Assembly (NCBI GenBank): GCA_964036295.1
Contig: OZ038464.1
Span: 10,154,001-10,218,000 of the forward strand
Reading direction: 5' to 3'
Source: Plumapathes pennacea
Lineage: Eukaryota; Cnidaria; Anthozoa; Antipatharia; Myriopathidae
Length of the DNA: 64,000 nt
Numbering within the stretch: the stretch's first letter is position 1; each line of letters begins with the position of its first letter. The notes beneath the pieces are model-generated. The model was not told the DNA's origin. It ran no database searches and saw nothing but the letters and a program-made list of their open reading frames with translations. Positions 1,030 to 62,100 of this stretch are shown here, piece after piece. The translations under genes and the position numbers were made by a program.

Positions 1030-1061
1030 GTGTGTGGGGCTCACCGCTGAGCCCCACACAC
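1030..1061. repeat. Perfect 14-bp stem, 4-nt loop hairpin
   Basis: GTGTGTGGGGCTCA at 1030-1043 is followed by a CCGC loop and its exact reverse complement at 1048-1061. The stem is perfect and GC-richer than its surroundings. No gene lies beside it, so it could be a fold-back element core or a transcript hairpin; its role is unknown. Confidence 0.85.
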
Positions 1062-12346: not shown

Positions 12347-12920
12347 TCAAGCCATGGTGAGTATTTCCCAGATTAAATTGTTTAATGAGGCATCAATCAC
12401 TAAAGAGTTGGTGTCTTGACCAACTGACATGCCCAATTCTTTGCGGCGGCGTAATACAGTTTGTGTGCTCACTCCAAGTATCCTTGCAATGTCACTCCAA
12501 CAAAATCCTACTCCGTTCCTCAACGTTTGTATCTGCTTTTCCTTTATGCAAAACAATGGCCTTCCCCTCTGACCGGTTCTTTCCGTGACACATAATGACT
12601 CCCTCTCTTCAATGTCATCAATATCTTCACAATCTTCATACAGAGCCCCCAGTCGTTCACACGTTTGTCGCATCAGTCATCAGCTGCTTGAGGTCTGATA
12701 CAAGGGTATCATGATTTGGATAAAGATGTGCTGACTCGAGTATTCTTTGGTATATTACTTGTACAGTTTTTTCATGCTGTTCCAGTCTTTGAACCAAAAA
12801 TTCCGCCGTGTCATCACAAGAGGTGCATTGTCTCAATAGACTCTCAGCATTAGCAAAGAAATCCTCAACATTCGGAATAAGTAAATGCCCAGCTGCTGCC
12901 GTTGCTTGATTTGGAGCTGG
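12347..12920 (-). pseudogene. Helix-turn-helix protein, N-terminal part of a transposase/integrase-like gene
   Basis: Reading from about 12920 leftward, a frame containing VEDFFANAESLLRQC and LYPNHDTLVSDLKQLM runs to about 12660. After a 1-nt shift it continues with GQRGRPLFCIKEKQIQTL and a clear helix-turn-helix, FCWSDIARILGVSTQTVLRR (helices around IARIL and TQTVLRRR), ending near 12350. GRP-x(n)-LGVS-type domains head a family of animal proteins that carry an integrase-type (rve) core further on. That core was not found here, so the gene is truncated as well as shifted. It begins just inside the right inverted repeat and converges on the HECT-like gene, suggesting a two-gene mobile element. 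Confidence 0.6.
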
Positions 12921-20975: not shown

Positions 20976-22683
20976 TTACCAGCTTTCCAGTGTAAGTCGT
21001 TGGTAGTAGTTGGTACTGTGGCTGATGCATTCAGCAGAGTCCCAGTTGATGTCGTGTTTAGTCTGTCGGTGGTGTTCAGAAATGTGATTTCTGATGTCGC
21101 CGTTTCTGGTAGCTCGTTTGTGTTCAGTAAGTCTCGTGTTCAGGTTTCTGCCAGTTTCACCGATGTAGGTGGCTTTGCAGTCAGTACAAGATATTCTGTA
21201 TACTGTTCCCTGTCTGTTGATGGGTTCGTCTTTGTCCTTTACGTTGGTCAGTAAGTCGCGTAGAGTCGTGATGGGTTTGTGGGCTACCCGGATGTTGTAG
21301 GGTCGTAGAATACGTGCTATCGTCTCAGAGGTGCCTCTGATATACGGTAGTGTGGCCAAGGTCAATGGAGTTGTGTCGTTAGTGGCTTCGTTGTCGGTAG
21401 TCTTGTTGGGTGCGGTGTTCTTGTGAGTGTTGCGTTTGACAAAGTTAGGGTCGTAGTCGTTCTTCTGGAAAACGCGTTCCAGGTGTCGGGTCTCGTTAAG
21501 TAAGTTGTCGGGAGAGTCACAAAGTAGTTGCGCTCGTTTCGTCAGCGTTCTGATCGTGGTAGCCTTGTGTGAAGTAGGGTTGTAAGAAGTCTGGTCAAGT
21601 AGTCTGTCAGTGTGCGTTGGTTTTCTGTAGACTGTAGTTCGTAGCCTGTCATTGTCGTGGCTCACGAGGCAATCTAAGAACAGAAGTTTTCCGTTGTCTT
21701 TGATTTCCTTAGTGAACTGTATGTCAGGGTTTTGGTCGTTCAGGTGTTTGTGGAAGGAGTCAATGTCGTCTTTGTGTACAGCAGTAAACATATCGTCAAC
21801 GTATCGTAGCCAGAGGCAGCGTTTGTTCGTAGGTTGCAAGGGCGTGTTCTTCGATGTGTTGCATCACAATTTCTGCTACAATAACAGAGACCGGTGAACC
21901 CATTGCTGTTCCGTGTAGTTGTCGGTAGTGTTTTCCGTTATACTGGAAGTACGTGGAAGTCAAGCATTGAGTTAGTAACTCCATGACGTCTTTAGTCGGT
22001 AAGGGTAGTTTGGTAGTGTGGCGTTCGATAGCAGTTTCAGTACACTGTAGTGCTAACTGAAGTGGAATACTGGTGAACAGTGATTTCACATCAAAGGACA
22101 CGAGTTTGTAGTCGTTAGGTATCTGTATAGTCTTGATCGCGTCGATGAAGTTCTCAGTAGACTGTAGTTTGTGTTTAGAATTGTTTGTCAGCGGTTTCAG
22201 TATGGTCGTTAAGTACTTCGAGAGTTCGTACATCGGGGACCCACAGAACGAGACTATGGGTCGCATCGGTATGTTAGGTTTGTGCAGTTTGGGTAGTCTT
22301 TAGAGTTTCGTTGACTGTGGCACTGAAGATCTCAGTCGGTAGTAACGTTGAATGTCAATAGCATCAGTCTTTCTCAGTGAAAGGACTTTGGCGTTCAGTT
22401 TCCATTGTAGAGCCGGTGAGGGGTCTCGAGTGAGTTCTTTGTATGTCTGTCGTTGACAAGTGCGTCCATTTTGTCGTGGTAGTGTTTTGTTCATGACAAC
22501 AGTCACTCGTCCTTTGTCGGCTGGCAGTATGACGATGTCTTTGTCGTTTTGTAGTCGTTTCAGTGCTTGTTTTTCGTCTTTGGTCATGTTGTTGTCATGT
22601 ATAGAGGCTGATTGTATCGTAGAAGCAATTCTGCTCCTGATGTTATCCTTGGCCGTGTCAGGTAAATCTCTGTTACGAGACAA
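20976..22683 (-). pseudogene. Penelope-like element: reverse transcriptase and GIY-YIG endonuclease
   Basis: Three blocks, 22683-22300, 22266-21796 and 21839-20976, together give a Penelope-like protein. Reverse transcriptase marks are ILPADKGRVTVVMNKT, VSFDVKSLFTSIP (first catalytic Asp), GTAMGSPVSVIV and LRYVDDMFTAV. The C-terminal block holds a GIY-YIG nuclease: GTVYRISCTDC, then ATYIGETGRNLNTRL and EHKRA. The enzyme pair copies RNA and nicks target DNA for insertion. Frame breaks near 22280 and 21820 inactivate it. The characteristic tail follows at 20640-20740. Confidence 0.9.
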
Positions 22684-31299: not shown

Positions 31300-32780
31300 T
31301 TTTTAACAGTAGACTTTGGCGTAACATAACTGGGAACTCTTTCCTTTTTGATTTTCCAATTTTTTGTTGACTATAGCTGAACTTTCAACACGCCATATGT
31401 TAGTACTCTGTACATTGTTACACACTCTTTGTTCAGTGGACATACAAGGAGCGTACATTTCAAGAAGTTTTATTGCAAAATGTTCCCTAAAACTGAAGTG
31501 TCCAACCAGGTTCAAGTTTGATGTAATGCGGTGTGTGCAGAAGACACGTGCCATGTGAGTGACCTACCTGTGCACTGTAAAGCCCCTTAAGATTTCATTG
31601 CAAATGTTCTCCCTTGAGATTTTAGAGAACATTGCAGGCTAGAACTCAACAACATGATAATTTGCGAAGGCCTCGGCGAGGCACAGGTTTTCTAACCAAA
31701 ATTATTATTCGTAATGGAAAGGACATCTTGTGTGTCTGTTATGGGTAGACAGTCGGCACTCAGGGTAAACGCAAAAATGAACAAAAAACACATTGCTTCG
31801 TTTTTTTGTTTTCTGGTGGGTGACCATTGTTCGTAGTTGGCCACAAATGTTGCATGTTTCTGGCCATGTCATGTGGAGGTGGAAGGGAAAATGCTTGACA
31901 ATTTTCTTCAAGTAGTCAGACTATTGATCTCTTCCAAAAAACCGATTGATTCCAGAGTGTTCTCACGTTCCTGCAGCTGGTCAACAAAGGCCAACAGGTC
32001 CAGGTGATTTGAGGCCTTTAAAGGTTGCTGGTTGCTCCACCTCCTGCAATTGTTGTCACTCAGCTCCCTGATCTATCCAGTGCAGTATAGGGTGGAATTG
32101 GTTGTCCTCTATCTAGTGGTCCTGGAGTTCTTCCTTTGTCCACTCTGGTATGGTACTGGTACAGGTAACAGCTCTGACTGTAGGCACCTCAGCATTGCTT
32201 TATGCCTGGGCGATGCTTGTATCATTGTTACATCACATTTTATTCATCCGACCCTAACAGGGTTTTCAAAACCAATTTACAAAGTTAAGGCATACAATCT
32301 AATTACAAAGATAATAATCATTACAATGATAATTTAAAAATTACAATGGTAATAATTGTCAACAAGCAAGCCGAGGCAGAAAAATTCTCGATCGAGCTGT
32401 TAAAAGTGTAATGTAAGGTGTAGATTCCCTAGGGGCCAATTATGAGGCCAGAAATATTAGAGCCAACAGAGCCAAGGAATATGGTGTGACCGTTCTTAGC
32501 CAATCAGGAGGGAGTATTTTACATGAGGTTAACACATGCACTCACTAGCATCTGTCATCGAGTTCTTTTTCTCTTGTTGGCACTTAGTGAAAGCTACAAC
32601 TAGTCTAATTTACAACTCTAATAATTACAATGGCATAAGACTAAAATGAAGAATTGGAGATCTCGCTCTTCTCATTTTGCTTAAAGCCTGTACATCTTTA
32701 GATTTTTTGTGATGGTGCTAAATTGGTTTCATGAGTTCATGCCACCTTTCTCTGCTGCTTCACACATCGTAGATCTCATC
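31300..32780. other. No gene recognised; 3' end of a LINE at right
   Basis: Most is unassigned. The part from about 32260 to 32780, with AATTACAA/ATAATAATCATT motifs, is the likely 3' untranslated region of the LINE at 32784-33650. A short phrase at 31837-31870 (minus) reading ATGGCCAGAAACATGCAACA recurs at 52402 and 57401. Confidence 0.4.
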
Positions 32781-33650: not shown

Positions 33651-33774
33651 GGGTATGGCCCCGTCAAGCTTAAAAATGGAAATTTTTTTGTTTTCCGTGT
33701 TTTTCTTTTCTGGGTCGAGAATCAGCACACGGTGATTGGTTCATATGATCATGTGATATGCGATGACGTAAACC

Positions 33775-33960
33775 ACCGCCTGGTTGGCTCAGTTGGTTGA
33801 GTGCCGGTCTTTCATGCAGGAGGTTGCAGGTTCCCGGCCGGACCAGCACTCAGGGTATTAAAATAACTTAGAAGATGCTGCCTTTGTTTTTATCAGCAAA
33901 TGGTAAGATCTTCACGTGGCTCGGATGACTATGTAAAATGGCGGTTCTGTCTCCCTATAC
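33775..33960 (+). mobile_element. tRNA-derived SINE
   Basis: The head has a pol III A box (TGGCTCAGTTGGTTGAG) and a B-box-like GGTTGCAGGTTCCCGGCC, then CCGGACCAGCACTCAGGGTA and an AT-rich body ending near CTATACTCC. The tRNA part lacks a sound fold and runs on into the SINE body, so it is not a tRNA gene. This head-body combination is one I associate with coral SINEs. Confidence 0.8.
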
Positions 33961-34087
33961 TCCTATACTTAATTATAGGGGGGACGTAAAAGAACAAGGA
34001 AGCAAGAGAGGCGTTAAAAAGAGCCAGGATAAGGATGAAGAAAGTGTTAACCCTTTGAGTTTTTAAGACGTGTATAATGGATTACAA

Positions 34088-34279
34088 ATGACAGCTGGTT
34101 TGATAGGTTCTTGTTTCGTGATATATCATGGTTACAGATTTTTTTACCCCCCGAAAACCACCGTAGATGCAAAACATGAAATGGTTGTAAAAAGTCCTGT
34201 TGAGAATAATAAAGTGGAAGAATCGACCCCAGTCAAGGAACCAAAACAAAAAAGTCAAACAAATATTGATATGGAATGA
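34088..34279 (+). CDS. Gene A: 63-aa single-pass membrane protein
   Basis: The first ATG in frame is at 34088 and gives MTAGLIGSCFVIYHGYRFF, one N-terminal membrane helix, followed by a Lys/Glu-rich soluble tail to NIDME. No family recognised. It is the first gene of the tight plus-strand series and ends 29 nt before gene B. It is intact. Confidence 0.6.
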   Translation: MTAGLIGSCFVIYHGYRFFYPPKTTVDAKHEMVVKSPVENNKVEESTPVKEPKQKSQTNIDME

Positions 34280-34308
34280 TTTAAAGATTAACACATCGTA
34301 TTTCAAAA

Positions 34309-34527
34309 ATGAGCAGTGAAAATAAACTTGTTAGTAATGCAAAAGAGGTGGTTGCTCTGGTTGCAATTTCTGCGGGAATTGGTTATGCTGTGAAGAAAGC
34401 TTTAAGAAAGGCAGTAACTTCAGACCCTTCTTCGAGTTTGATGAATGCGGTTGAGTGGACGGGAGTTATGATTGGAGCAATTTACGCAAGAGATTATCTC
34501 AAAGATCAAAAAATTATTCCAACTTAA
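34309..34527 (+). CDS. Gene B: 72-aa two-helix membrane protein
   Basis: It starts at an A-rich site (TTTCAAAAATGAGC). Hydrophobic stretches lie at about residues 13-29 (EVVALVAISAGIGYAV) and 44-61 (LMNAVEWTGVMIGAIYA), with a basic loop (KKALRKA) between them. It could be a small viral-type membrane protein; no homologue recognised. Gene C starts 4 nt after its stop. CGTATTT upstream resembles half of the inverted motif at genes F and I. Confidence 0.6.
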   Translation: MSSENKLVSNAKEVVALVAISAGIGYAVKKALRKAVTSDPSSSLMNAVEWTGVMIGAIYARDYLKDQKIIPT

Positions 34528-34531
34528 GAAA

Positions 34532-34732
34532 ATGAAAATTATCAACAAAATGAAGATCATAGGTGTAACAGTATGTGGGTTTTTGCTTGGAAAAAGTCTT
34601 ATTGATTTATTAAATACAAACCAGATACCAATAAAGGATTTGAGTGGGGTCACAATAGAGAATACTCATACTTATGACATTTCAGGCATTGCAATGACAT
34701 TTTTTGGTTTCACGGCCGGATTATTGATATAA
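34532..34732 (+). CDS. Gene C: 66-aa two-helix membrane protein
   Basis: The chosen ATG at 34532 is the first after the gene B stop. Helices are IGVTVCGFLLGKSLIDLL near the start and ISGIAMTFFGFTAGLLI at the very end; the middle is a short polar segment. No family recognised. AACTTAAGA precedes the start, and the same string precedes gene H. Confidence 0.6.
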   Translation: MKIINKMKIIGVTVCGFLLGKSLIDLLNTNQIPIKDLSGVTIENTHTYDISGIAMTFFGFTAGLLI

Positions 34733-34741
34733 GGAGTTAAA

Positions 34742-34767
34742 GTTACCATTCTAAAAAGAATGGCAAC
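34742..34767. promoter_or_regulatory. Inverted repeat over the gene D start codon
   Basis: GTTACCATTCT (34742-34752), loop AAAA, AGAATGGCAAC (34757-34767): 10 of 11 pairs match. The ATG of gene D (34760-34762) lies in the right arm. It may act as a transcript-end hairpin for gene C, or as a site controlling gene D. Confidence 0.6.
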
Positions 34768-35190
34768 ATTTTTAACCGTAGCTATTGGTGCGATATTAAA
34801 CGCAGGTATGTTTATTGGTGGCAGTTACTTGGCAAAGTTTTTGTCAGGAAAAGATCAAGACGAAGAAAGAGACACGATTTGGCTATGCAAAAATATGAAA
34901 AAGATTACAACAATTGGAAAGAAAAAATGGGAAAAATAGAACTTTGGAGAGAACAACGAGAAAAAGATAAAGAGAACGCTTCATATAATTTTCGAAGCAC
35001 AGATGAGGCATTAAAGGCCTGTGCTGAAACTCATCCAGATGAAAATTTAAAAGAACCTAATTTCAATGATTATTATTCTCCAAGCAAAGACCAAAAGAAT
35101 GGAGAGATGATATTCACAGGATTGACCGTAGCTGGTTTAGCTTTGGCGTCTCAAAAATATATTGACTTAATGTTTTCGTATGATGACTAA
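34760..35190 (+). pseudogene. Gene D/E: membrane protein with a frame shift
   Basis: From ATG 34760 the frame gives MATFLTVAIGAILNAGMFIG, one long membrane helix, and SGKDQDEE. Near 34855-34870 the coding shifts to another frame, which continues AMQKYEKDYNNWKEKMGK, a charged likely coiled-coil, and ends with a second hydrophobic segment, MIFTGLTVAGLALASQKYI. The two parts fit as one protein of about 140 residues with one single-base lesion. No family recognised. The stop lies inside the hairpin that precedes gene F. Confidence 0.55.
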
Positions 35191-35203
35191 AATCATACGA
35201 AAA
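35173..35203. promoter_or_regulatory. Perfect 12-bp inverted repeat between genes D/E and F
   Basis: TTTTCGTATGAT (35173-35184) and ATCATACGAAAA (35192-35203) are exact complements separated by 7 nt. The D/E stop codon is in the spacer region and the gene F ATG starts on the last base of the right arm. The core TTTCGTAT...ATACGAAA recurs before gene I. Confidence 0.8.
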
Positions 35204-36117
35204 TGGCAGAAATAGATCCAGAAAATCCTTTTGAACCTAGTACACATGACGGAGATGGGAATGGTGAAGAATTTCCGATGAGACCAACTAGTTCTCGCGA
35301 TACAACTTTGAATCCTTTTCAACACCACGATACACACGATACTGAAGAAACATCATTTGGTGGTGATTCAGAAACAGATCCATTACCAATGGAAAGAGGA
35401 CGCGATGAAGCTTGGAATGAAATTACTAAAAAGTTTCCAAAATGTGATCCTAAGAAATCTTCTTTCACAGCTTCAATTGATGAGTATGGCGAAGTCAAAG
35501 TGAAACTTAAGCGACTTGGTGGAAAGTCATACAGTTTGTTTGGGGCAGACGGACAGTTGAATAGTAAACTTCCTACTTCAATAAAAAAAAGTCTCGGCCC
35601 ACCTGCGGAAGAAGTTGTCGAAAACCTTGAAGACACGATTTCAGAAGTTAGTGAAGAAGTTAAGATTCTTAAGGAACGAAGAGAAGAAGCTTCTGGATCT
35701 GCTAGGGTTGAAATTAATAGGCAAATGAAAGGAAAAGAAAACAAAGTACTAGAGCTAACGCAAGAAAAAGAAGTTATTGAAGAAAGGATGTCTTTGAAAG
35801 ATCGAGTTAAGGCAATCTTCAAAAAATATGGTTTGTCAGTCATTGGTGTTTTAACAGCTGTAGGAACCATCATTGGTGTTATTGTATCAAATCTCAAAGC
35901 AGGTTTATCAAAGGTGGCAAAAGGTGTTGGAGATGGACTTAAAGAGATTGGAAAAAAGTTGGCTGGTATTCTTCCTGGAATGGTTGGAGCAATAGTTAGC
36001 TTTTTGTTTAAGGCTGCTGGAGAAGCCATCGGATTTCTTTCGAAACACGCTTGGTTATTGATTCTCCTTGTCGTAACTTTTGTCATTGAACAATTTAAGA
36101 ATAAGAATAAAAGGTAA
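35203..36117 (+). CDS. Gene F: 304-aa coiled-coil protein with membrane-active C-terminus
   Basis: Intact. Residues 1-75 are acidic and disordered (DPENPFEPSTHDGDGNGEE). About 140-205 form a charged coiled coil (EEVVENLEDTISEVSEEVKI). From about 210 a hydrophobic segment (LSVIGVLTAVGTIIGVIVS) leads to an amphipathic helix (GLKEIGKKLAGILPGMVG), a second hydrophobic stretch and a last membrane helix (WLLILLVVTFVIEQF) with a basic end. The layout would suit a capsid-lined membrane or membrane-disrupting protein; this is inference. I believe similar proteins occur as multicopy unknowns in cnidarian genomes, but could not check. The long open frame on the opposite strand (35319-36230) is its shadow. 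Confidence 0.7.
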   Translation: MAEIDPENPFEPSTHDGDGNGEEFPMRPTSSRDTTLNPFQHHDTHDTEETSFGGDSETDPLPMERGRDEAWNEITKKFPKCDPKKSSFTASIDEYGEVKVKLKRLGGKSYSLFGADGQLNSKLPTSIKKSLGPPAEEVVENLEDTISEVSEEVKILKERREEASGSARVEINRQMKGKENKVLELTQEKEVIEERMSLKDRVKAIFKKYGLSVIGVLTAVGTIIGVIVSNLKAGLSKVAKGVGDGLKEIGKKLAGILPGMVGAIVSFLFKAAGEAIGFLSKHAWLLILLVVTFVIEQFKNKNKR

Positions 36118-36118
36118 T

Positions 36119-36541
36119 ATGTATCAGACAAACTTATTATTAAGGTTAAAAGCTCATAGGAAAAATAGTAGAAATCAGGTTTTAAGTGTGGCAGCAAAAG
36201 TAAAACTCGCAAAACAAATCCAAGGAGCAAAATTCTTTGAGGTTATTTCTTGCCCATACACAACTTCTCCTTTAATCATTCGTTGTGACCTAGTGGATGA
36301 GAGTTCGTTCTTCTCAAACATGAGTGAAGGAGAAGAAGTGCTAGAGAAGGTCAATAATACAGATAAATTCTTGATTGTAGAGAACAGCATACCATCTGAT
36401 GAAGCGCCCATAAGCAGCAAAAAAAGTCTAATAAATGACTTCGTGATTGAAATTGAACTATTTAGAGATAAAGCCATCTTTAACCACGAATCACTTCCAG
36501 AGGCATTTGCTAAAATTGCTATTCATCATACAGAAAAATAA
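36119..36541 (+). CDS. Gene G: 140-aa soluble protein
   Basis: It starts one base after the gene F stop, the tightest junction in the cluster. MYQTNLLLRLKAHRKN is basic; later text is mixed beta/alpha (KFFEVISCPYTTSPLIIRCD, then LVDESSFFSNMSEGEEVLEK). No membrane helix, the exception among the plus genes. No family recognised. Intact. Confidence 0.6.
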   Translation: MYQTNLLLRLKAHRKNSRNQVLSVAAKVKLAKQIQGAKFFEVISCPYTTSPLIIRCDLVDESSFFSNMSEGEEVLEKVNNTDKFLIVENSIPSDEAPISSKKSLINDFVIEIELFRDKAIFNHESLPEAFAKIAIHHTEK

Positions 36542-36578
36542 CTTAACTTAAGAGAATATTAAATGAATGATAACAAAA

Positions 36579-37175
36579 ATGAGTGAAGTTACTCAAAAAG
36601 AAAAATTGTACCCTGATGTTCCAAAGGGTTCTAATGCTTTCAGGTTAAGTGTTTGCTCAAGAATTCTCGAAAAAATGAAGAAAAACTTGGAAAGTGATAC
36701 CAAGAAGAGAAAGGAAAAATTAAAAAAACATTCTAGACTTAGAACAGTAAACATATTTTCATTGGCTGGCGCTTCAGTTTTATCAGTTTCTGGAGCAGGT
36801 GTTTCAGGAACTGGTTTTGGTGTTATCGTTGGTGCTCCTCTCATCGGAGTCGGCGCACTCTTAGGAGCAACATCTCTAGTGACTATTTCGCTCGACAAGG
36901 AAGTCGTAGGAAAATTAACGATCTACGAAAAGTTAATATCACTTGGTCAATCAAAAATTAGCAGCATTCATGAAATGGTAAATAAAGCACTTTCAGATGA
37001 AAATGTTTCTGAGGAAGAGTTTAGGAAAATGAACAACGAACAAAATGATTATGAATTGAAAAGAAACGAAATTCCTAAGGTTCCAAAAAAGGGAGGAATG
37101 CTAAGGGGATCGCAAAGCATGAGAGACTTGACAGAAGAAATTTTGAAGCTTCTTCGGCAATCGAAAACTTCTTGA
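36579..37175 (+). CDS. Gene H: 198-aa protein with a glycine-rich membrane hairpin
   Basis: The start at 36579 was chosen for its A-rich ACAAAAATGAG context, like genes B and F; an in-frame ATG lies 12 nt upstream. A basic N-terminal helix (ILEKMKKNLESDTKKRKEKL) precedes two hydrophobic, Gly/Ser-rich segments at about residues 60-105 (ASVLSVSGAGVSGTGFGVIV, then GAPLIGVGALLGATSLVTI). The soluble tail is charged. Such hairpins occur in pore-forming or virion membrane proteins, but no family was recognised. Intact. AACTTAAGA precedes it, as before gene C. Confidence 0.65.
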   Translation: MSEVTQKEKLYPDVPKGSNAFRLSVCSRILEKMKKNLESDTKKRKEKLKKHSRLRTVNIFSLAGASVLSVSGAGVSGTGFGVIVGAPLIGVGALLGATSLVTISLDKEVVGKLTIYEKLISLGQSKISSIHEMVNKALSDENVSEEEFRKMNNEQNDYELKRNEIPKVPKKGGMLRGSQSMRDLTEEILKLLRQSKTS

Positions 37176-37406
37176 ATATAGACAAAATAACTTTTGAAAA
37201 TTTAATCTGCTCCCCCTTCAGGCCCCGGCTGACATATCCGTAGTATCTGGGAAACAGGCGACACAGACTCACATTTAGAGCGACATTTCTGGACACATTT
37301 GCGAATATACGCTCCGCTCACAAAAGAAGGAACACAGCTGTATGGTGTGACCATGACATATGTTTTGGCAAAGGTAAAAGCTTATTCCGAGTTTTTTTGC
37401 GTTTGC

Positions 37407-37784
37407 TGATATGTTTGTTGACACATGATTTCATGCCATAATTGCAAATGCAGATCGACTGTGGTATGTCTGAGTTGTTTGTTTATAAAATTGTCTCGAG
37501 CGGATTCTGTCACTAATGAAAAATCGACAGGAAATTTTACTGTGAATCCTTTTCACCACCGTTCGAATAGCACGAGAAACAGGTTTGTTCGGCTGGAGTG
37601 TGTTACGTTGCGAAACTATTATAACGAGTCAAAATCTGGTTTACCTCGCATGATATGTTTGTTGACACATGATTTCATGACCAGATCGACTGTGGTTTGG
37701 CTGAGTTGTTTGTTTACAAAAATTGTCTCTAGCGGGTTTTGTCGCTAATGAAAAATCGACTGAAAAGACGACAGGAAATTTTAC
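37407..37784. repeat. 134-bp direct repeat in the gap before gene I
   Basis: 37407-37540 and 37651-37784 are diverged direct copies starting TGATATGTTTGTTGACACAT and ending GACAGGAAATTTTAC, with internal small indels. They fill much of the only long gap of the plus series (37176-37907). They could be a control region, an origin or a decayed insertion. Confidence 0.75.
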
Positions 37785-37883
37785 ATTAGAGACATAAACA
37801 TTAGCATTAGAACTCGAAATATGGACCAAAGAATGAAACCAAGCGCTCCACCGGCATATGAAAATGTTACTTAAAAGTTTATT

Positions 37884-37907
37884 GTTTCGTATTAAAAAAT
37901 ACGAAAC
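37884..37907. promoter_or_regulatory. Perfect 10-bp hairpin abutting the gene I start
   Basis: GTTTCGTATT (37884-37893), loop AAAA, AATACGAAAC (37898-37907), then directly ATG at 37908. The core equals that before gene F (TTTCGTAT...ATACGAAA). Confidence 0.8.
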
Positions 37908-39542
37908 ATGAGCAAAAAAGCGATACTCAGCGAAAGAGATAAACTAAGAGCAGTAAGTTCAGATGAATCTGCCATTTTTCACAAAATGTTTCCAAAAGTT
38001 AACATGCAAGAGTGGCTTGAGAATAAGAAAAAAGCCTATGATATGTTCAAGAAACACTTCCCCGACGAGAAAGATGAAAAATTTTATGAATACGACGCAG
38101 ACGGAAAATTTATTACATCATGGAAAGATACTGCTAATGGACCTGGAGCCTCAAGAGACATCTGGTCTGATGGAAACTTTTTAGTGAATCCAGAAACATT
38201 TTCAGAAGATTTTCAGAAGATTTGGGAAGAAGAGTTTTATTTCGATTCACATTATTATTGACGACGGAAACTTATAGCCTCCATCCAACGCCTTTCAATC
38301 ATTCCACTAAACCAGTTCCAACAGATTTGAAAATTTACGTCACGCCTGAAAAGTCCTTTGTTGCGAAAATGAAAAATGTTTTCATGAATGAAACGCTAAC
38401 GTTTACAACTGCCAAACAGGCCAAAAAGTGGTTAGCAGGACCTGAAATAGAATTTTGGCCGCAACAACTAAGCTTCGCTGTTTGGTGTGCCACTTGTGGA
38501 TGTGGTATTGGCCTTGATGAAAATTATTCAAAAGTAGTTCAAAGTTTGATTGAATTTCATGTGTATTTCACGATACGAAGAATTCTTTGAGTTAGGAGTC
38601 GCTTTGCCTAATACAAATGCTTTTAACGCGTTGAATAATCCTGTTGACAAAGAAAAATATCAAGCTTTGTGTAATGAGTTTGGATTGAATAACCCTGACC
38701 TTCGATGGACGCGCGGAACAAATGGCGGATTAGGTGATGTTTACGCTTATGATCACGTTCACGGTCATTATTCGAATACAAGAACAAGTCCTTGGTTTTC
38801 AAATAAGGCTGCAAAATGGCCTAATGGTGGATTACACTTTTCAGATTAGAGTGGTCCTTCAAATAAAGTGATTCAACACATTCGAAACGATTTTCATCAT
38901 GGTAAACAACATGAATGGTTCGCTTTGAGAAAAGGAAAAGGAATTACAAAAGCTGGGCTTGGAAGACTTAATAGGAGTATCGAAGCTTTCGTTTATTGTG
39001 TTTTGGGAGTGCAAGCAAATGTTAGAAATCCTGTTGTTGGAGACAGTGGTGGAGTTCAAGAAGCGCAACAAGAAATGTTGGTTTTGTTTGAAAGTGCCGT
39101 GATAGAAGAAGACATTTCCAAAAGCATCTCAAGGTATCAACTTGCTGTTCAAAATGCGAAGGTTAAATTAGACCTCGCGATCACGCCTGGAACTTGGTTG
39201 CTTCCTTCTGAATTAGTCATAAATACTGGAAGGGTTGATGGTTATAACAATAAGTTACAAAAGGCTACGGATGAAATGAGGTTTGGGTTGAATGATTCAG
39301 TAAACAAGAAGGAAGACAAGTTAGTTGTGAATGCTGGCAAAGCCAAGGATGAAAAACCAACCAAAAGCGTGAGTCATAGTCACATTAAGGTTGAAAATCA
39401 AGAACCTGTCACACAAGTAGGGTCAGTTACGAATTACTCAACAAGCGCAAAGGTTCACGAAGAAAAATTAGCTTTAATCACTGTGCTAGTTGGTGCATCT
39501 TGCTTGATGGTTATTTCATTAACACACACATTTCGAAACTGA
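37908..39542 (+). pseudogene. Gene I: ~540-residue protein, broken by two shifts and a stop
   Basis: Starts MSKKAILSERDKLRAV. The frame changes near 38235-38260 and back near 38555-38590; a TAG sits at 38847-38849 where the second copy (48.9 kb) has a sense codon. Visible blocks: KQAKKWLAGPEIEFWPQQLS and CATCGCGIGLDENY in the middle, WTRGTNGGLGDV, then NRSIEAFVYCVLGVQ, SRYQLAVQNAKVKLD, VDGYNNKLQKATDEM, and a C-terminal membrane helix (LALITVLVGASCLMVIS). No known family is assigned. It is the largest gene of the cluster and a candidate structural or surface protein by size and C-terminal anchor; this is inference. Confidence 0.7.
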
Positions 39543-39562
39543 AAAAAAGCTAAAAATCTGCC

Positions 39563-39580
39563 TGACTGACGCGTCAGTCA
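39563..39580. terminator. 18-bp perfect palindrome between convergent genes
   Basis: TGACTGACGCGTCAGTCA is its own reverse complement. It lies 21 nt after gene I and 115 nt from the end of gene J, and is GC-richer than its surroundings. A bidirectional transcript-end hairpin is the simplest reading; a protein-binding site is equally possible. Confidence 0.6.
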
Positions 39581-39694
39581 CCTGAAAATAACCAAATTTC
39601 TACTTACGGAATTCACATGCTAACAGATATCATCATCTGGCGCGTCGAAAAACTTAATGATGAGCAAGCCTTCTGTGATTAATGACCATTCGTT

Positions 39695-40372
39695 CTATTG
39701 TGGTGGAACAGAACACCAAAAATCCTTGTCTTGCTCGCAAATTTCCTTAATCATAGTTATCTTACCGCTAAAAGTCCTCAATGGAATGCAACAAAACTTC
39801 AACATTTGAAACTCAAACAGCAAGTCGTACAACGATACCAAAAGCGTGGCATGACTTCTGGATATGCCACATCTCTCGATAACTTCCTTGAATGCAAATA
39901 TTTGAAGTTGTGCCTTCGCTTGCTTCAACAAACGCCTTTGGTAGTAATGTAACAGAAGTGTTGACTGCTCTCGTTCTTTTATGGCATTGTTGATCTTGTT
40001 TATAGCCATAATGAAGTGCGCTGCGTCACTCTCGTCAGTGCTCAGGCTTGAAAACTCCGGCAGTGGATTGCTCTCTTGTTTGATGTGCTTGATTGAAGAT
40101 CTGAGTTTCTGCTCTAGTTCTTCCTTCTTAGCGGCTCTCTTCTTGGCCTTCTCTTCTTTGTCATCCTCCGTCCTTTCGTCAAGCATCTTTCCTTCCAGTT
40201 GGTAGTAAAAACTCTCCAATTCGTTTTTCAGTATTGGATAATTAGATGCCAATTGGCTCAAGACACGCCAAACTTCTTGCATCATGACCTTAGTGCCCAT
40301 CTTAGTTGAAAGTTTTATTGCGAGTTGTTGAGTAACGCGAGCTGTTGTTAGCTTCAGGAAGAAGTTAGTCAT
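39695..40372 (-). CDS. Gene J: 225-aa charged protein with possible helix-turn-helix
   Basis: Intact from ATG at 40372. Residues 60-95 are a Lys/Glu-rich helix (DDKEEKAKKRAAKKEELEQK). The C-terminal third (FKEVIERCGISRSHATLLVS, then LYDLLFEFQMLKFCCIPLRT) has the spacing of a helix-turn-helix, with ISRSHA as the turn and start of the recognition helix. No membrane segment. It could be a regulator of the element; function unknown. It converges on gene I across the palindrome and follows the zinc-repeat gene on the same strand. Confidence 0.6.
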   Translation of the reverse strand: MTNFFLKLTTARVTQQLAIKLSTKMGTKVMMQEVWRVLSQLASNYPILKNELESFYYQLEGKMLDERTEDDKEEKAKKRAAKKEELEQKLRSSIKHIKQESNPLPEFSSLSTDESDAAHFIMAINKINNAIKEREQSTLLLHYYQRRLLKQAKAQLQIFAFKEVIERCGISRSHATLLVSLYDLLFEFQMLKFCCIPLRTFSGKITMIKEICEQDKDFWCSVPPQ

Positions 40373-40506
40373 GAATTATTTAGCAACGCTAATCTTTTAT
40401 TCACACCTGTCAAAGTCAACAATTTGATCAACAAGCGGCGTAAGCAAATAATTAAATTCATAACCAAATTAGTTATGAATTATTTAGTAATGCTAATGTT
40501 TTATTA
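40373..40506. repeat. Duplicated gene J start region
   Basis: ATGAATTATTTAGCAACGCT (from 40371) recurs as ATGAATTATTTAGTAATGCT (from 40475), each followed by AAT-TTTTATT; TAGTTATGAATT resembles TAGTCATGAATT at the gene J start itself. A local duplication placed a second copy of the leader about 104 bp upstream. Confidence 0.65.
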
Positions 40507-40562
40507 AACTATGGTCTAGTTATAAACACCTTAAAATTCTTGCTTACTTGGATATAAACCTC

Positions 40563-40874
40563 TCACCTTACAAATCTTACAACTATGTGATAATCATGTT
40601 TGCAAAAACCCTTTCCTCCACAATCTCGGCAATAATATTTCCTCCTACCATGTGTGCAAAACAAATCACCTTCACAATCCCTACAAGATTGTTTGTATCT
40701 ATTGTGTTTACAAATCTGAGACCCCTAGCAAATCTTGCAAGTATACTTAAACTTTTTGTGAATACAATAATAGTCTTTGTTCCTCTTAGGTGCTCTTTCC
40801 ATAGCTTTAGCTAAGACGAGGTCTTCATCGTCTAACTGTTCATGTTTAATTTTGGGAATATTTTTATTTTCCAT
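40563..40874 (-). pseudogene. Zinc-binding Cys/His repeat protein (103 codons, one stop)
   Basis: The sense frame starts MENKNIPKIKHEQLDDEDLV. Four repeats with an 18-residue period follow: C-x-H-x6-C-x2-C spaced by five or six residues (CIHKKFKYTCKIC, CKHNRYKQSCRDC, CTHGRRKYYCRDC, and a partial CKHDY). A TAG at 40725-40727 replaces a residue after the first unit. Each unit supplies three Cys and one His for zinc. Tandem C-x-H...C-x2-C repeats of this kind are, to my knowledge, frequent in proteins of large nucleocytoplasmic DNA viruses. It precedes gene J on the same strand and is the best hint to the cluster's origin. Confidence 0.75.
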
Positions 40875-41169: not shown

Positions 41170-41572
41170 CTAGAATTTAATTTTCCATTGTTTAAGTAGT
41201 GCATCAGTATATTTCAGTTGTTTTAACAACTTTGATGCCATTTCATTTTCTTTCATTTCCTTCAATGTTGCCATTCGGCAGTCATGGTCAAGAAAGAATT
41301 GTTTCTCCCAGTCCTTAATGTGCTGCTTGAGGACACCCTTTTGTGCCAACACTTGTGTTTGGATCAATGCCAGGTTATCCTTATATATGTCAGTCGCAAA
41401 TGCACTAGTTGGTGTTTTCTTTAGACGGCTATCGGCAGAGTCAAACTTTCTGGCCTCTTCTGTTGCCCCCAGCACAATTCCTACTGCTTTGCCAAGTTGT
41501 GTGGTTAGTGTATGTTGATGAGTTGATGCTTCAGTATTGTCGGTGTCAGGTTCATTTGGTGAAGGTAGCTGG
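41170..41572 (-). CDS. Terminal exon of an uncharacterised coiled-coil gene
   Basis: The exon begins after an acceptor (TTCCAG) near 41573 and reads PSPNEPDTDNTEAS, KFDSADSRLKKTPTSAF, DIYKDNLALIQTQVLAQ and MATLKEMKENEMASKLLKQL to a stop at 41170. It is helical and charged, like the C-terminal part of Myb/SANT-type transposon accessory proteins in invertebrates; that link is weak. Earlier exons were not identified. It is outside the virus-like cluster, because it is spliced. Confidence 0.45.
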
Positions 41573-44524: not shown

Positions 44525-47230
44525 TCATTCATCACCATTGTATCCTGGTCCAAAAGGCTGCCCATCACCCATTCCTTCTTCCAAGAAGTCTGTGACCACT
44601 CTCGTTACCTTCCCATCAGCATGTGGAAGGTAAAGAAAGTGGGCAGGGACTTTGATCTTTTGTTTCAGGCATGTGTTCCAGCACTGGGAAAGGTAGTTTT
44701 CTTCCTCCTTGAAGTTTGTGTAACGAGAATGATGCATTGTTGGCCCTTCGTTTCTTGTGTCTGGTTCATCTTTGCTGTCGAAAAACTTCACCATTCCGCT
44801 GACATTGTGATACTTCCACCAGACCCCCTCTCCTGGTAAAAGAAAGTCACTGATGTTTTCCATCAATGGGCTTGCCACCATCTGGAGAGTTTCAGCTCGT
44901 ACAGGATACAGCTAAGCACCTTAGTGTTCCATATCGTGGCAGGCTGGAAGCAGGCTTGCTGATGTTGTTTTGCTGCTTTCTTCTGGTGTTCTTTCCAGTG
45001 CCAAGTTCCTCTTCTGCCTGAAGCCTCAATAGAAGGTTGGGAATGAGATGACCTGGCTTGTTGTTGAAAGTTGATTTGGTGATGCCATTTATGGCATTAA
45101 AGATGTGTTTCTCATCTTCTGAATTTGATGACTCACCAGATATGAGGCGGAGCTGAATTGGTTCATGGGCAACAAGGTTGTGCAAATACTTTCCATAGAA
45201 TGTTCTGGCACTTAGGGCTGTAGGAGTTGCACCAAACTCAAGGCTGCACATCACAAAATGGAGAAAGCTGATGTTGTGATACCTGAGAATCAGGCGAGGG
45301 CATCTGTTATAATCTTTTGTATATAGCACTTGTTCCATCTCAACTGGGGTGTCAAGAAGCATCTGAACAGTCGGTGTCACCAGGCCTTTCGGTCTCTTGG
45401 CAATGAGAATAATAGGAAACCTGTAGTCACATGCCCTCTTTGCTTCCTTGTGTCCAAGGGACAGCTCCCAGGTCTCCTGGAACTTTTTCTTTGCATTCCC
45501 TGCCAGGTGATTTGGAAGTTCCTCCAGTACATTTGATATGTGATTTGAAATATCATGCATTGGCTCACATGTGAGGGCTTCATATGACTGGAAGTAGAGG
45601 CTCTCCAAGGAAGGAGTTGGGTCACGGTAAAGGAATGCTGGCACTCGTTGTACTCCACGGAGCTCTGATGTTAACTCATTCTCAAGGGCAAGTTTCTTCA
45701 TCGTGGTAGCATCTTTCACTATTGCTCTTTCCTCCAACTCTTCCTGCAGCTCTTTCTTCAGTCCCTGTAGTGGGTTTGGATTTTGTGCAATGGAGTTTCT
45801 TTTCCCAAATGGTCCTCCTAAAACCAGCTGCTGTTTGTCTTGTAAGGGTCTGTGCTTGCATTTGAAAACATAATCCAGCTCATCACACATAGCTGCGTGA
45901 ACACCACAGGCAGAACAAAAGAAGTGCCCCCCTTTCTGCTGGCCAGTCTCAAATGCCACCACTAGTCCATCACCCTTGAAAAATCTCATTACGTCAGTTA
46001 CAAGGACAGCTGGTGAGACCTCCATCTGGTTGGCTAGGTTGTTGAGACAATCACACCGTGTTTCTACATAGGCCAGCTGCTTGACATCACTGCTTTTGCA
46101 TCTGCCTACAATGTAGATATCTGGCTTCTCCACCTCCACCTGTATGTCCAACCACTTGCCTGTCATCTGATGGTATTCTTCTGGTGTGACGTACAGTGCA
46201 GGGTCATAAATGCAGGATACCATGAAAACCAAATGTTCTTGATTTGCCACCGTGGAGTGGTCATGCCACACAATCAGATGCCTCCGTCTTTCAATCTTCT
46301 TTAGTTTTCTCCGCATTACAGATAGCCCATCTCCATCATCAAACTCGTTCAATTCACCAAGCCTGTTTGCAACATCAAGTCTAGACATCTTTTCATAGTA
46401 CTGGTCAGGATGGTATCTTGTGTACTCTTTGTGTTTCATCATAGTTTTTTTGCGAATTTCATCTAGAGGCCTTTTCCTTCTATTATGAATCTTCTTTCTT
46501 CACATTCCCTTTTTTGTCTAGAACAAGCTTTTCATACTTCTTTGGAACAATGAGTTCACCCACAATGTATTGTCCATTCCGAATCTTCAATCTGAGGGTT
46601 TTCTTGATGTCATTTGTCTCAAGTGTTGGCACTGATATTTCCCCTATTAATAAGGCAAAATAGAATTTCTTTTAAGAGTATTTTGACACTTACATTGTAC
46701 ATGTGTATATTGCATCCATCAATGTGCATCAGGGTGCTGTACATACTCTGCACATGTACGTGCAGCAGTGTTGTTAGTATCTTTTTGTAAACTTGTTTGA
46801 TATAGTTAGATGAATCTTATGAACACAGTGTACTGTACCTCCATTTCCCCATAGTTTTTTCCTTCGAATTCTGGGTTCCACATCTGCTTTTTCATTTGGT
46901 CTTTTGAAGCGGTGTATGTTGACTCCCTGATAAGAAATTCTTGTGCTATTTGCCCACCATTCTTGGCTAGTTCTCTCTTGGTAATTCTGTATCTCTTGGC
47001 CAGACCACTCCAGTTTACTTTAAACCCATCTTCATATCCTTCAACCTCAGCTCTAAGGCCAGTCTTGTCCCAGGTCATCTCATCAATTTTGCCTGCATGG
47101 TCCTTCTTTTAGGGGCCCCTTCATGACCAACATCACTCTCTCTTCTCTCTTTTGAAGCTTGTTTCGTTTCAAATGACATTGCTATCCTTTCACGTTGTCT
47201 TGCACAGAATGATTGTCTGTTTCCCATGCA
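44525..47230 (-). pseudogene. Uncharacterised multicopy-type gene with HTH and zinc motifs
   Basis: A first exon (about 47230-46848) reads MGNRQSFCARQREKIAMSF, shifts near 47090, then has EGYEDGFKVNWSGLAKRYRI and TKRELAKNGGQIAQEFL, a helix-turn-helix-like segment, ending at a GGAG|GTACAG donor. The next exon starts GEISVPTLETNDIKKTL (acceptor near 46647), shifts near 46490, and opens into 516 codons (46442-44892) with LIVWHDHSTVANQEHLVFMV, a zinc-type HFFCSACGVHAAMCDELDYV and a SAP-like LQGLKKELQEELEERAI. After another shift near 44885 comes LPGEGVWWKYHNVSGMVKFF to 44525. I recall similar repeated unknowns in corals, probably transposon genes. Function unknown; DNA binding is likely from the HTH, SAP-like and zinc motifs. 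Confidence 0.55.
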
Positions 47231-48300: not shown

Positions 48301-49006
48301 TCTTAGTGGATCCAAATACTTTTTCAGAAAGTTTGAAAAAAGGACTTAGGAAGGACAATCTTGTTCCCATTCACATTGTTGATGACAGAAGCTTGTGACT
48401 TACACCCAAAACCTTTCAGCCACTCCACGAAACCAGTATCCACAGATCTCAACATTTATGTAACCCCTGACAAGTTCTTTGTTGCAAAGATGAAAAACGT
48501 TTTTCATGAATGAGACGCTTACGTTTACGACAGCAAAACAAGCAAGGAAGTGGTTGGCAGGACCTAACATCTCCTTTTGGCCACAACAACTAAGCTTTGC
48601 TGTACGGTGCACAACTTGTGGACTTATTAGAAAGTAGTTCATAGTTTGATTGAGTTTCATGTGTACTTCACGATAAGAAGGGTTTTACACGAGGTTGGTG
48701 TTGCTTTTGACGCACTGGATGATCTTGTTGACAAAGGAAAGTATCGAGCTTTGTGTGAAGAGTTTGGATTGAATAATCCTGACTTCCGATGGACACGTGG
48801 AACAAATGGAGGATTAGGTGATATTTTTGCTCGATCACGTTCACGGTCATTATTCTAGCTCAAGAATGAGTCTTTGGTTTTCTAACAAGGATGCAAAGTG
48901 GTCTAATGGTGGATTACACTTTTCAGGTGAAAGTGGTTCCTCAAAAAATGTGATTGAACATATTTGAAATGATTTTCATCATGGAAAACAACACAAATGG
49001 TTCGCA
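48293..49006 (+). pseudogene. Truncated second copy of gene I
   Basis: This aligns with 38172-38920 in the same orientation, by eye at roughly 85% identity in sampled stretches, and contains blocks equivalent to FGLNNPDFRWTRGTNGGLGD. It starts and stops inside the gene. It has its own lesions: a stop where gene I is open, a shift near MKNVF, a ~24-bp deletion near 48620 and a shift near 48830. At the position of the gene I TAG it has a sense codon. Differences in the best conserved block are largely synonymous. Confidence 0.85.
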
Positions 49007-59239: not shown

Positions 59240-62100
59240 CCCCCTGGGGGGCGATGAGTCTAGCAATGCAGGTCATAAGTATATTTTTTTCCCTCCATCG
59301 AGAATCTGCACACTGTAATTTGTTGGTGATCACGTGATTGTGATGACCTACTTATTATTGGCGAGCAAATTTGAAGAGAGAGAGAAAGACATGCAGGCAT
59401 GCAGGCATACATGTCTGTATGGTTTTCCTTGTGGTAGTGATTGTTGTTTAAACGGATAGCTGATATGCGCCTTCAACTTTACTAGTCTGCTCCACTTTAG
59501 AAGCAATAATATTGATGCACTGTCATGAACTGAATCTGGCAGTCCCAGTCGCTCGAAGGATCATGTTGGAATTATCTTGCTTTGCAATATTCTTTCTGTG
59601 TTGTAAATGAAGCGTCTGAGAATGTATAAACAAGTTTCACTCGGCCATGCGTAATTCACATCGTTTTAACGTTTCCAAGTGCAAATGCTTGATTATAGAT
59701 ACCGCTTCAACCAATGTATTTGTGTTCTGAGCAATATTTGTGTGAAAGAACATCGAATAAGCAGAAGACATGGTGAAACTTAATAAAACTTGAACTCGAA
59801 TTTACCCTGCGGGCAGAGTGTCTCCCTTTGTCGGAAACTCAGGGGCTTTGTGTAACGTGCGGCATATATGAACAGTCGGCGTTTAACTTCATTTTGCGTG
59901 AAGTAAAGGTTCTTTGTTTATTGTCTGAGGATACTAAATTACTAATAGGTTTGAGGCAAATATCACGTGAGATTAAGATACAAGATCTGTCAATGAAATG
60001 TCACGAGGTTATTATCATCGAATGGGAAATCCCGAATCATCAGCTACTTAGCTTTCACTCACGCTACTTTAACAAAAGCAGGAAAGACCGGCAGGCTATT
60101 ACATTGAGAATATTTGTCACTGATTACCTCGAAGTTGTCAAAAGCTCAAGCTTCATATCTGACTATCCATGCCTAATGTTCGCTCCTCAAGTGTGGTGCA
60201 TGCCTTTGTTGTCACGGTGTTCAAACGTCTGCAGCTTCCGATAGAGATTAATTTCGTATCGACCCAGAATTTTGCATTAAAGCTTAATGCATAGCAGTCT
60301 TGAACATGTTTGTGTATCAGACTTGTACATATAGGATGCATAACTTCTGAGATGGCATTTTCATATGAAGCAACTTCACCACTGGGCAAATAAAATGAGA
60401 AGTAACCATGTTTTAATGTGCTGCAGAGATAAGTCTAAAGCTGTCAATTACAGCTACTTGAACATGATGCACACGCTGGGAAGATTAGCAAAGACAAGGT
60501 AAGACTAAAAAGCTGTTATTACAGCTACTTGTACATGATACATATGGAAATATTCCAACATCTGCTGCAGAGATGGGCATAAGCAAGCAATATTAAAGAG
60601 AGTGGCACTGAGAAAAGCTTTTTGTTGTTGCTGTTAGGGTCTTCGTTTTCCGGCTCAGGTCTTCGTTTTCAGGGTCTTTGTTTTCGTTACAACCCGGTAG
60701 TGTCAAGACAAGAACTCCAGTGGAGATGACGCAGCAACTTCACCACTGGGCAGTCAGTTGATAGGTGTGAGTCACCAGTTTTAAGGGATGTGGGCACTAC
60801 AGATAGGTGAAAGTGATACCGGGCATCATGTTCTAAAAGCATTTCAACATGAGATAAGGCTAGTTCCCCAGTCAATCCCATTACAAAATGACAACACAGT
60901 TCCTCCACAAAACATGTCAGCTTGAAAATTCACTCAACAAGGTTGCCAGGTTATATAGCAAGCATCACACCAGTATTGTCACATGCATCGGAAAGCAAGT
61001 TCAAAATGCTCCCGGCAAAAACGATCACTCAAAACAAAAGCAAATCACTCATTGAAAATATTATTCCATATGAAACATATCTGGCATGAGTAAACTGGCA
61101 CTGCCAGTCTAGTTTAAGTTTAAAAACATAGTTTCCTGGCAAATGTGGTGCGAGCAAGATTCGCTTGCAGGCCCTAAGGCACATCCGCATCCATCTTGAA
61201 TCACATGAAGCTTATTAAAGCTACTTTCTGCATCTTGCTGCTCCATTGTGTGGAATGGAATTAAAAGCGTGTTCGAAGATTGTATTTTTGTTTGTTGCTA
61301 TGGAAACAGAACTTCTAGCTGTACGTGGATAGCTATTTATTATCAATCAGGCGTCACGACTCAGTTGACATGTGGGAATCATCGAAAGCAAAACTTTTTA
61401 ATGCGTGTTTTCAGGAAAGGTGAGAGCTTTCTTTTCACACTTGCTTTTTGCTGATAGAACAATCATACACTGAGCTACTCGATAGCAATTGCATGTTCTT
61501 GAACACACATTTTCGCAGCGTAAAGTTATAATTTTTTTTCAGTCACTGCATTATTTTACACTTTCAATTATCACTGGTCCACATCGGCAGATTTATTCGA
61601 ACAACCTTTCAAAGCATTACCTTTTCAAGTAAAAATTAATCACGAAACCGTTTGCTTGTTTGTTTAAAATGACTGTTTTTTAATTTGCAAACCATCAACT
61701 CTTTCAAGCTAAACCCTTTAAATGCTTTTAGAAAACCGTTAGCTTTTCCAGACCATATGTTTGTTATCGACAAGTCATAAAACGCTTTTTAACATTAACG
61801 ATCTTTCGTTGAATTGGCCTGTTTAACGGAAAAGCGTTTGTGTACGTTTTCGTGTGGGAGGTCACATTTTTTTTCTGGTGCTGTGAATTCCATTGTTGTC
61901 AATGATTAAGGAGATCCACGAAGTTCTTTTAAAGTCAAAATTCATCTGAGGTGCCAATGTAATAGTAATAATAGTTTGTTAATCACAAACTCAAGAGACT
62001 TATTACAACTCACACACGAGTCTCATGCGACCCCAATAACCTGATGCGTTGTTAACTAGTTAACTAATAATAAATTACCTCTGACCTACTACACTTGCAG
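59240..62100. other. Long stretch without recognisable genes
   Basis: The longest frame (59828-60244, plus) has no domain or splice support. Small local duplications occur: AGCAACTTCACCACTGGGCA at about 60368 and 60728, and GCT-ATTACAGCTACTTG at about 60445 and 60515. Nothing else was recognised. Confidence 0.45.

What the first reader, a model, noticed from the sequence alone, without database searches (positions are those of the whole stretch)
34088..40874. Compact virus-like gene cluster of unknown class in an animal genome
Ten genes without visible introns in 6.8 kb, gaps down to 1 nt, eight plus and two convergent minus, inside a region where the recognisable genes are split or transposon remnants. 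Seven of eight plus genes encode membrane helices or membrane-active segments (A, B, C, D/E, F, H, I); one minus gene is a Cys/His zinc-repeat protein and another has an HTH-like end. No known capsid, ATPase, polymerase or integrase signature was seen, so this does not fit Polinton, adintovirus or retroelement plans that I know. It may be the membrane/structural module of an undescribed integrating virus or transposon.
Basis: partly seen in the sequence, partly recalled or inferred. Interest (0 to 1): 0.88.

Follow-up and report, generated by a model that had tools for sequence, protein, structure and literature searches.

The report
Decayed virus-like element in anemone-like DNA
A broken copy of a compact cluster of small, mostly membrane-protein genes sits in what looks like sea-anemone or coral DNA; two of its genes have very many relatives in protein databases but none in the virus collections searched, so it probably belongs to an undescribed virus-like mobile element.

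Summary
The cluster is real: eight plus-strand and two minus-strand genes in about 6.9 kb (33980-40874). It is a truncated, decaying copy. Gene 8 is broken by at least one frameshift and a stop, gene 4 by a frameshift or overlap, and about 640 nt of repeats lie before gene 8. Two proteins belong to very large families: gene 5 has 1182 relatives, gene 8 at least 3010 (capped). The two organism-named relatives are sea anemones. The window holds a second gene 8 fragment. Differences between the copies fall mainly on third codon positions (45 of 78), as for replicating, selected lineages. No relative appeared in Pfam, PHROGs, PDB, BFVD, IMG/VR, phages or prokaryote genomes, each searched with part of the genes. 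New features: strong hairpins exactly at three gene starts, and a short ORF with an overlapping PSAP/PPAY late-domain motif. Best reading: the membrane module of an undescribed integrating virus-like element. No capsid, polymerase, integrase or element end is recognisable in this copy, and no animal genome could be searched, so class, gene order and capsid status stay open.

The parts
33980..34066 (+). possible end of a further upstream ORF, cut on the left by repeat-like host DNA
   Evidence: frame-1 translation; short, no homologue tested
34088..34279 (+). g1, 63 aa, hydrophobic N-terminus (borderline)
34309..34527 (+). g2, 72 aa, membrane segment
34532..34732 (+). g3, 66 aa, membrane segment (alternative ATG at 34550)
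34742..34767 (+). hairpin, 10 of 11 pairs with loop AAAA, spans the g4 start codon
   Evidence: coordinates counted on the sequence
34760..35190 (+). g4, membrane segment at the N-terminus; frameshift near 34880 or two overlapping ORFs
35173..35203 (+). perfect 12-bp hairpin: g4 stop codon in the loop, last base is the A of the g5 ATG
35203..36117 (+). g5, 304 aa, intact: disordered N-tail with NPF motif, folded alpha/beta part plus helical hairpin, C-terminal membrane segments
   Evidence: 1182 relatives, alignments, model
36119..36541 (+). g6, 140 aa, no membrane segment, 1 nt after g5
36567..37175 (+). g7, 202 aa, Gly/Ala-rich hydrophobic middle
   Evidence: no confirmed relative in IMG/VR
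37176..37820 (.). insertion-like stretch with an internal repeat of about 129 nt (37407-37534 and 37651-37766)
37821..37874 (+). short ORF or gene remnant, 17 aa, ending PSAPPAYENVT (overlapping P[ST]AP and PPxY motifs)
   Evidence: only P[ST]APPxY match in six frames of the window; 0 in 100 shuffles
37883..37908 (+). perfect 11-bp hairpin, loop of 4, last base is the A of the g8 ATG
37908..39542 (+). g8; full-length relatives of 502-566 aa with four conserved Cys and a short C-terminal hydrophobic tail; broken here (frame change near 38587, TAG at 38847, probably another frame change near 38240)
39563..39580 (.). 8-bp palindrome between the converging ends of g8 and g9; stems of this length are not rare in the window
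39695..40372 (-). g9, 225 aa, with a weak HTH-like match
   Evidence: DUF2802, E 0.0024, below cut-off
40455..40481 (.). perfect 10-bp hairpin between g9 and g10
40548..40874 (-). g10, Cys/His repeat protein with an in-frame stop
   Evidence: no Pfam match
48319..49005 (+). second, decayed copy of part of g8, probably from a separate insertion

Best explanation
This is a truncated, decaying copy of a high-copy integrating element of cnidarians (at least sea anemones). It carries the membrane module of an undescribed virus-like agent. Shown: compact intronless genes; very large conserved families for two of them; two g8 copies in the window whose differences fall mainly on third codon positions; hairpins at some gene junctions. 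Inferred: small membrane proteins g1-g4 and g7, with g5 as a scaffold having a cytosolic N-tail, shape a host-derived membrane. g8, made in the cytosol and held by its C-terminal tail, coats that membrane or works at entry. A late-domain peptide recruits TSG101/ESCRT and NEDD4-type ligases for release. The junction hairpins may end one mRNA just before the next gene, as in Mimiviridae. Replication, packaging and integration genes would lie in the missing left part or beyond.
For: Recurrence: g5 has 1182 relatives at E<=1e-3 among 4935 candidates, and all 120 listed are 295-333 aa long; the g8 C-terminal piece has 94 of 333 and the g8 profile 3010 of the 7991 candidates that were scored, a capped set. 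A g5 relative and a g8 relative both list a longest contig of 1,121,608 nt, so probably the same contig (P0005, P0278). Selection: 20, 13 and 45 differences at codon positions 1, 2 and 3 between the two g8 copies, over four ungapped blocks of 489 nt in all. Membrane character: g5 C-terminal segments pass in 119 of 120 listed relatives and the first 190 residues in 0 of 120; 98 of 105 full-length g8 relatives end in FR or FK, and 0 of 105 have a hydrophobic N-terminus. NPF motif in the first 70 residues of g5 in 118 of 120. Late-domain motif unique in the window. Hairpins: 3 perfect stems of 10 bp or more in the cluster against a shuffle mean of 0.18, 0 of 100 shuffles reaching 3; 3 of 9 plus-strand starts (g1-g8 and the short ORF) have at least 10 pairs, against 7 of 1500 random places outside the cluster.
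Against: No hallmark gene of any virus was found. The late-domain peptide is one unverified 17-aa ORF in a decayed copy. The g8 tail is short: only 4 of 105 full-length relatives pass the 19-residue hydropathy cut-off. Six of 9 plus-strand starts and both minus gene starts have no strong hairpin, and at 8 bp or more the cluster is hardly richer in stems than its surroundings (0.56 per kb against 0.30 and 0.48). Gene order was not tested in any other genome, and on a 1.1-Mb contig two high-copy families may meet by chance. IMG/VR gave no confirmed relative, which argues against a common free virus in sampled environments.
Confidence: 0.6

Rival explanations
1. It belongs to the Polinton/adintovirus/Polinton-like lineage: the jelly-roll capsid, ATPase, polymerase and integrase genes were in the part lost from this copy, and the cluster is a lineage-specific set of minor virion and membrane-active proteins around an inner membrane or capsid core.
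For: Mavericks occur in Nematostella (passage of PMC8097293); membrane-active capsid core proteins with holin-like segments are proposed across this group (passages of PMC11071296); adenovirus protein VI also carries a PPxY motif (start of the abstract of PMC2841620).
Against: No Pfam match to PolB, integrase, ATPase or protease in the plus genes (the ATPase-named hit to g9 is at E 0.085, below cut-off); the g8 model is mainly helical, not a double jelly roll; no confirmed IMG/VR relative.
Confidence: 0.25
2. It is a fragment of an integrated large DNA virus: many small membrane proteins, cytosol-facing tail-anchored proteins with conserved cysteines, Cys/His repeat proteins, and junction hairpins that end transcripts.
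For: Hairpin-terminated mRNAs are a Mimiviridae trait (abstract and passages of PMC4402537); four near-invariant Cys in g8; hairpins here.
Against: Very high copy number of g5 and g8 is unlike giant-virus insertions (general knowledge); no viral fold match at E<=0.001 for g5 or g8.
Confidence: 0.12
3. A non-viral transposon or selfish plasmid-like element carrying membrane genes as cargo, spread within genomes only.
For: High copy number; no capsid gene seen; host context full of transposon-like ORFs (by eye).
Against: Cargo-only genes would not be expected to keep such sequence conservation; the late-domain motif and membrane proteins point to particle release (inference).
Confidence: 0.1
4. 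An ordinary host gene family or exons of one host gene.
For: It lies in what looks like host chromosomal DNA.
Against: Separate ORFs each with its own start and stop, gaps of 1-29 nt between the first seven, thousands of relatives of g8, and a second copy in the window.
Confidence: 0.02

Closest known systems
Polintons/Mavericks and adintoviruses
   Same: Compact intronless genes integrated in animal genomes, many decayed copies, purifying selection on genes; known from Nematostella (PMC8097293, passages).
   Different: None of PolB, integrase, ATPase, protease or capsid genes was recognised in this copy (Pfam; the core proteins pz and pw of Mavericks were not compared); the g8 model is no jelly roll; no convincing terminal inverted repeats.
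Polinton-like viruses
   Same: Small virus-like elements that mostly lack an rve integrase and can be integrated (PMC4642659, abstract part and passages).
   Different: Their shared module of major and minor capsid protein plus ATPase is not seen here.
Mimiviridae hairpin-terminated transcription
   Same: Hairpin-forming palindromes, not conserved in sequence, at gene ends (PMC4402537, abstract and passages).
   Different: Only 3 of 9 plus-strand starts have a strong one here, and transcription was not tested; no related protein found.
ESCRT late domains of enveloped viruses
   Same: Overlapping P[ST]AP and PPxY motifs, as recalled for filovirus matrix and some retroviral Gag proteins (recalled, not tested).
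   Different: Here in an isolated 17-aa ORF of unknown conservation.

Membership tests
Polinton/Maverick or adintovirus | PolB and rve integrase genes | tested here: inconclusive
   no such Pfam match in the cluster ORFs scanned, but the copy is truncated
Polinton/Maverick or adintovirus | double jelly-roll major capsid and penton proteins | tested here: inconclusive
   g8 (largest) modelled as mainly helical, pLDDT 73.6, g5 helical, pLDDT 65.2; the other genes were not modelled; missing part unknown
[quoted passage not shown]
   one search lists 9 inverted pairs in 28-50 kb; one of 26 nt, 77% complementary, lies on both sides of the cluster (32429-32454 and 41447-41472). I take it for chance but did not test it; the left end is truncated
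Polinton-like virus | MCP, mCP and packaging ATPase module | tested here: inconclusive
   no such Pfam match in this copy
Giant virus (Nucleocytoviricota) fragment | hallmark genes | tested here: inconclusive
   none recognised in the cluster; only this stretch available
Giant virus (Nucleocytoviricota) fragment | hairpin-terminated mRNAs (Mimiviridae) | tested here: inconclusive
   hairpins at 3 of 9 plus-strand starts, one between g9 and g10 and an 8-bp one between g8 and g9; transcripts not available
Repeated mobile element | many dispersed copies of the same coding sequences | tested here: met
   second g8 copy in the window
Repeated mobile element | the same gene order in other copies | not testable with these tools
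   proteins only, no context; one g5 relative and one g8 relative probably on one 1,121,608-nt contig
Enveloped, ESCRT-budding virus | conserved late-domain motif | tested here: inconclusive
   present in this copy; 0 of 120 g5 relatives (first 70 residues only) and 0 of 105 full-length g8 relatives carry PSAP or PPxY; the short ORF itself is too short to search

The most novel reading that the evidence does not exclude
An undescribed class of integrating animal virus whose particle is built on a membrane by these proteins without a jelly-roll capsid: a pleomorphic or membrane-vesicle type virion, released by ESCRT and present in very many copies in anthozoan genomes.
Probability: 0.18. Interest if true: 0.92.

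Novelty: new variant of a known kind. Interest (0 to 1): 0.62.

Why it matters
If complete copies confirm it, and if the many unnamed relatives are cnidarian like the two named ones, cnidarian genomes hold thousands of copies of a virus-like element whose main proteins match nothing in the protein family, fold and virus collections searched here. It would add a new lineage to the viruses of early-branching animals. It would also raise the question whether an animal DNA virus can do without a known capsid type. The large families give ready material for annotation.

Tried and rejected

Papers: eight searches about such elements listed no description of this one, judged by titles and abstract starts; some searches listed only 20 of 78, 10 of 25 and 12 of 44 papers. 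One search was about hairpins (8 of 24 listed). I read passages, the outline and two sections (15, 18) of PMC11071296 and passages of PMC4402537, PMC8097293 and PMC4642659. Other papers named were seen only as listings. Subscription journals and most preprints are outside that library.

Rejected: host exons (copy numbers); LINE origin (the LINE-like ORF, so named by recall, ends left of the cluster).
Full report
What is there. The window looks like animal DNA with many transposon-like ORFs (by eye). Between about 33980 and 40874 lies a block with another texture: the + strand is purine-rich (0.54-0.61 per 500 nt) up to 39.5 kb and pyrimidine-rich from 39.5 to 41.5 kb, which follows the coding strands. 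I name the genes g1 to g10; their coordinates are in the parts list. The plus genes g1 to g7 are separated by 29, 4, 27, 12, 1 and 25 nt.

What state it is in. It is a damaged copy. Homologues of g8 match 38138-38587 in one frame and 38583-39497 in another, with a TAG at 38847; the first 230 nt of g8 are assigned by position only, which would mean one more frame change near 38240. g4 changes frame near 34880 or is two overlapping ORFs. About 640 nt with an internal repeat separate g7 from the g8 region. The left end looks cut by host repeats, and g10 has an in-frame stop. The lack of recognisable capsid, polymerase and integrase genes here therefore says little about the complete element.

Recurrence. 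g5 (304 aa, intact) has 1182 relatives with E<=1e-3 among 4935 candidates; the 120 listed are 295-333 aa long and 51-58% identical. One of them is an uncharacterised Nematostella vectensis protein. The last 224 residues of g8 have 94 relatives of 333 candidates, including one 91% identical and one from Actinostola. A profile of 18 relatives finds 3010 among the 7991 candidates that were scored, a capped set; 105 of the 120 listed are full-length, 502-566 aa. One g5 relative and one g8 relative list the same longest-contig length, 1,121,608 nt, so they probably share a contig, though on so long a contig two high-copy families may meet by chance. The window has a second, decayed g8 fragment at 48319-49005. 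Over four ungapped blocks (489 nt, picked by the repeat finder) the two copies differ at 20, 13 and 45 first, second and third codon positions. That is the pattern of lineages that diverged while coding, before both decayed. This is how a replicating element behaves, not a duplicated dead sequence.

What the proteins look like. In the 120 listed g5 relatives, 118 have an NPF motif and 118 an acidic dileucine-type motif in the first 70 residues. The dileucine pattern is loose: it also occurs somewhere in 68 of 105 g8 relatives, and by eye the window's g5 lacks it. Then come a confidently modelled helix-strand-helical-hairpin part (residues about 62-200) and C-terminal hydrophobic segments (119 of 120 pass). 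The whole g5 model is of low confidence (pLDDT 65.2, pTM 0.46). Full-length g8 relatives have no hydrophobic N-terminus (0 of 105); in the 69-row alignment four cysteines are conserved (40 of 41, 41 of 41, 46 of 52, 62 of 63 rows with a residue there) and a fifth in 24 of 42. Their short hydrophobic C-terminal tail ends in FR or FK in 98 of 105; AlphaFold makes that tail a helix. Only 4 of 105 tails pass the ordinary 19-residue cut-off, though the window's own does, so a tail anchor is an inference. The g8 model (pLDDT 73.6, pTM 0.70) is mainly helical with some strands and has no fold match. g2, g3, g4 and g7 have membrane segments, g1 perhaps, g6 none.

First, hairpins. Perfect stems of 12 and 11 bp end exactly on the A of the ATG of g5 and g8, and a stem with 10 of 11 pairs spans the ATG of g4. 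The cluster has 3 perfect stems of at least 10 bp, against a mean of 0.18 in 100 dinucleotide shuffles, none of which reached 3; the rest of the 64-kb window has 2. Of 9 plus-strand starts (g1 to g8 and the short ORF) 3 carry such a stem; of 1500 random places outside 7 do (0.5%), and of 1500 inside 2.3%, a figure that includes these same stems. Against this: six plus-strand starts and both minus starts have none, and at 8 bp or more the cluster has 4 stems in 7.1 kb, not far from 11 in 23 kb on the right and 10 in 33.8 kb on the left. One more perfect 10-bp stem lies between g9 and g10, and an 8-bp palindrome lies between the converging g8 and g9. In Mimiviridae hairpin palindromes end the mRNAs (PMC4402537, abstract and passages); whether these do so is untested. 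Second, a 17-aa ORF just before g8 ends in PSAPPAYENVT: a P[ST]AP motif overlapping a PPxY motif, the two classic ESCRT-recruiting late-domain motifs (recalled). The single motifs are not rare (7 each in six frames of the window), but this is the only P[ST]APPxY, and none occurs in 100 shuffles. No listed g5 relative (first 70 residues) or full-length g8 relative carries these motifs, and the ORF is too short to search, so its conservation is unknown.

Interpretation. Recurrent and mobile is well supported for g5 and g8. Viral, membrane-building and ESCRT-released are inferences from protein type, compactness and the motif. The main rivals are a Polinton-type virus whose hallmark genes are missing here, and a giant-virus fragment; copy number speaks against the latter. 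Eight paper searches listed no description of it (judged from titles and abstract starts, some lists cut).

Limits. The window's own genome could not be searched: eleven identical requests did not complete (listed under Tried and rejected). No collection that answered reads animal genomes, so no complete copy, flank or gene order was seen. The host is inferred to be an anthozoan from the two named relatives and the repeat context.

Noticed in passing
window 44892-46442 (-): 516-aa intact ORF with a Cys/His-rich middle and no Pfam match at E<=0.1; may be an undescribed transposon protein about 4 kb right of the cluster. Not known to belong to it.
   Followed up: partly
window 40348-40401 and 40452-40505: 54-nt direct repeat, 80% identical, duplicating the start region of g9.
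   Followed up: no
window 33715-33960: SINE-like stretch with tRNA-like boxes directly left of the cluster, after a LINE-like ORF (read by eye; ARAGORN finds no tRNA gene); a 56-nt part, 33715-33770, recurs at 59298 (79% identical).
   Followed up: partly
window 12347-12673 (-): ORF with weak, sub-cut-off helix-turn-helix matches of transposase type.
   Followed up: no
window 20976-21839 (-): ORF ending in a GIY-YIG domain (E 6.9e-06, above cut-off), as in Penelope-like retroelements (recalled).
   Followed up: no
window 1030-1061: perfect 14-bp GC-rich hairpin far from the cluster, the longest stem found in the window.
   Followed up: no
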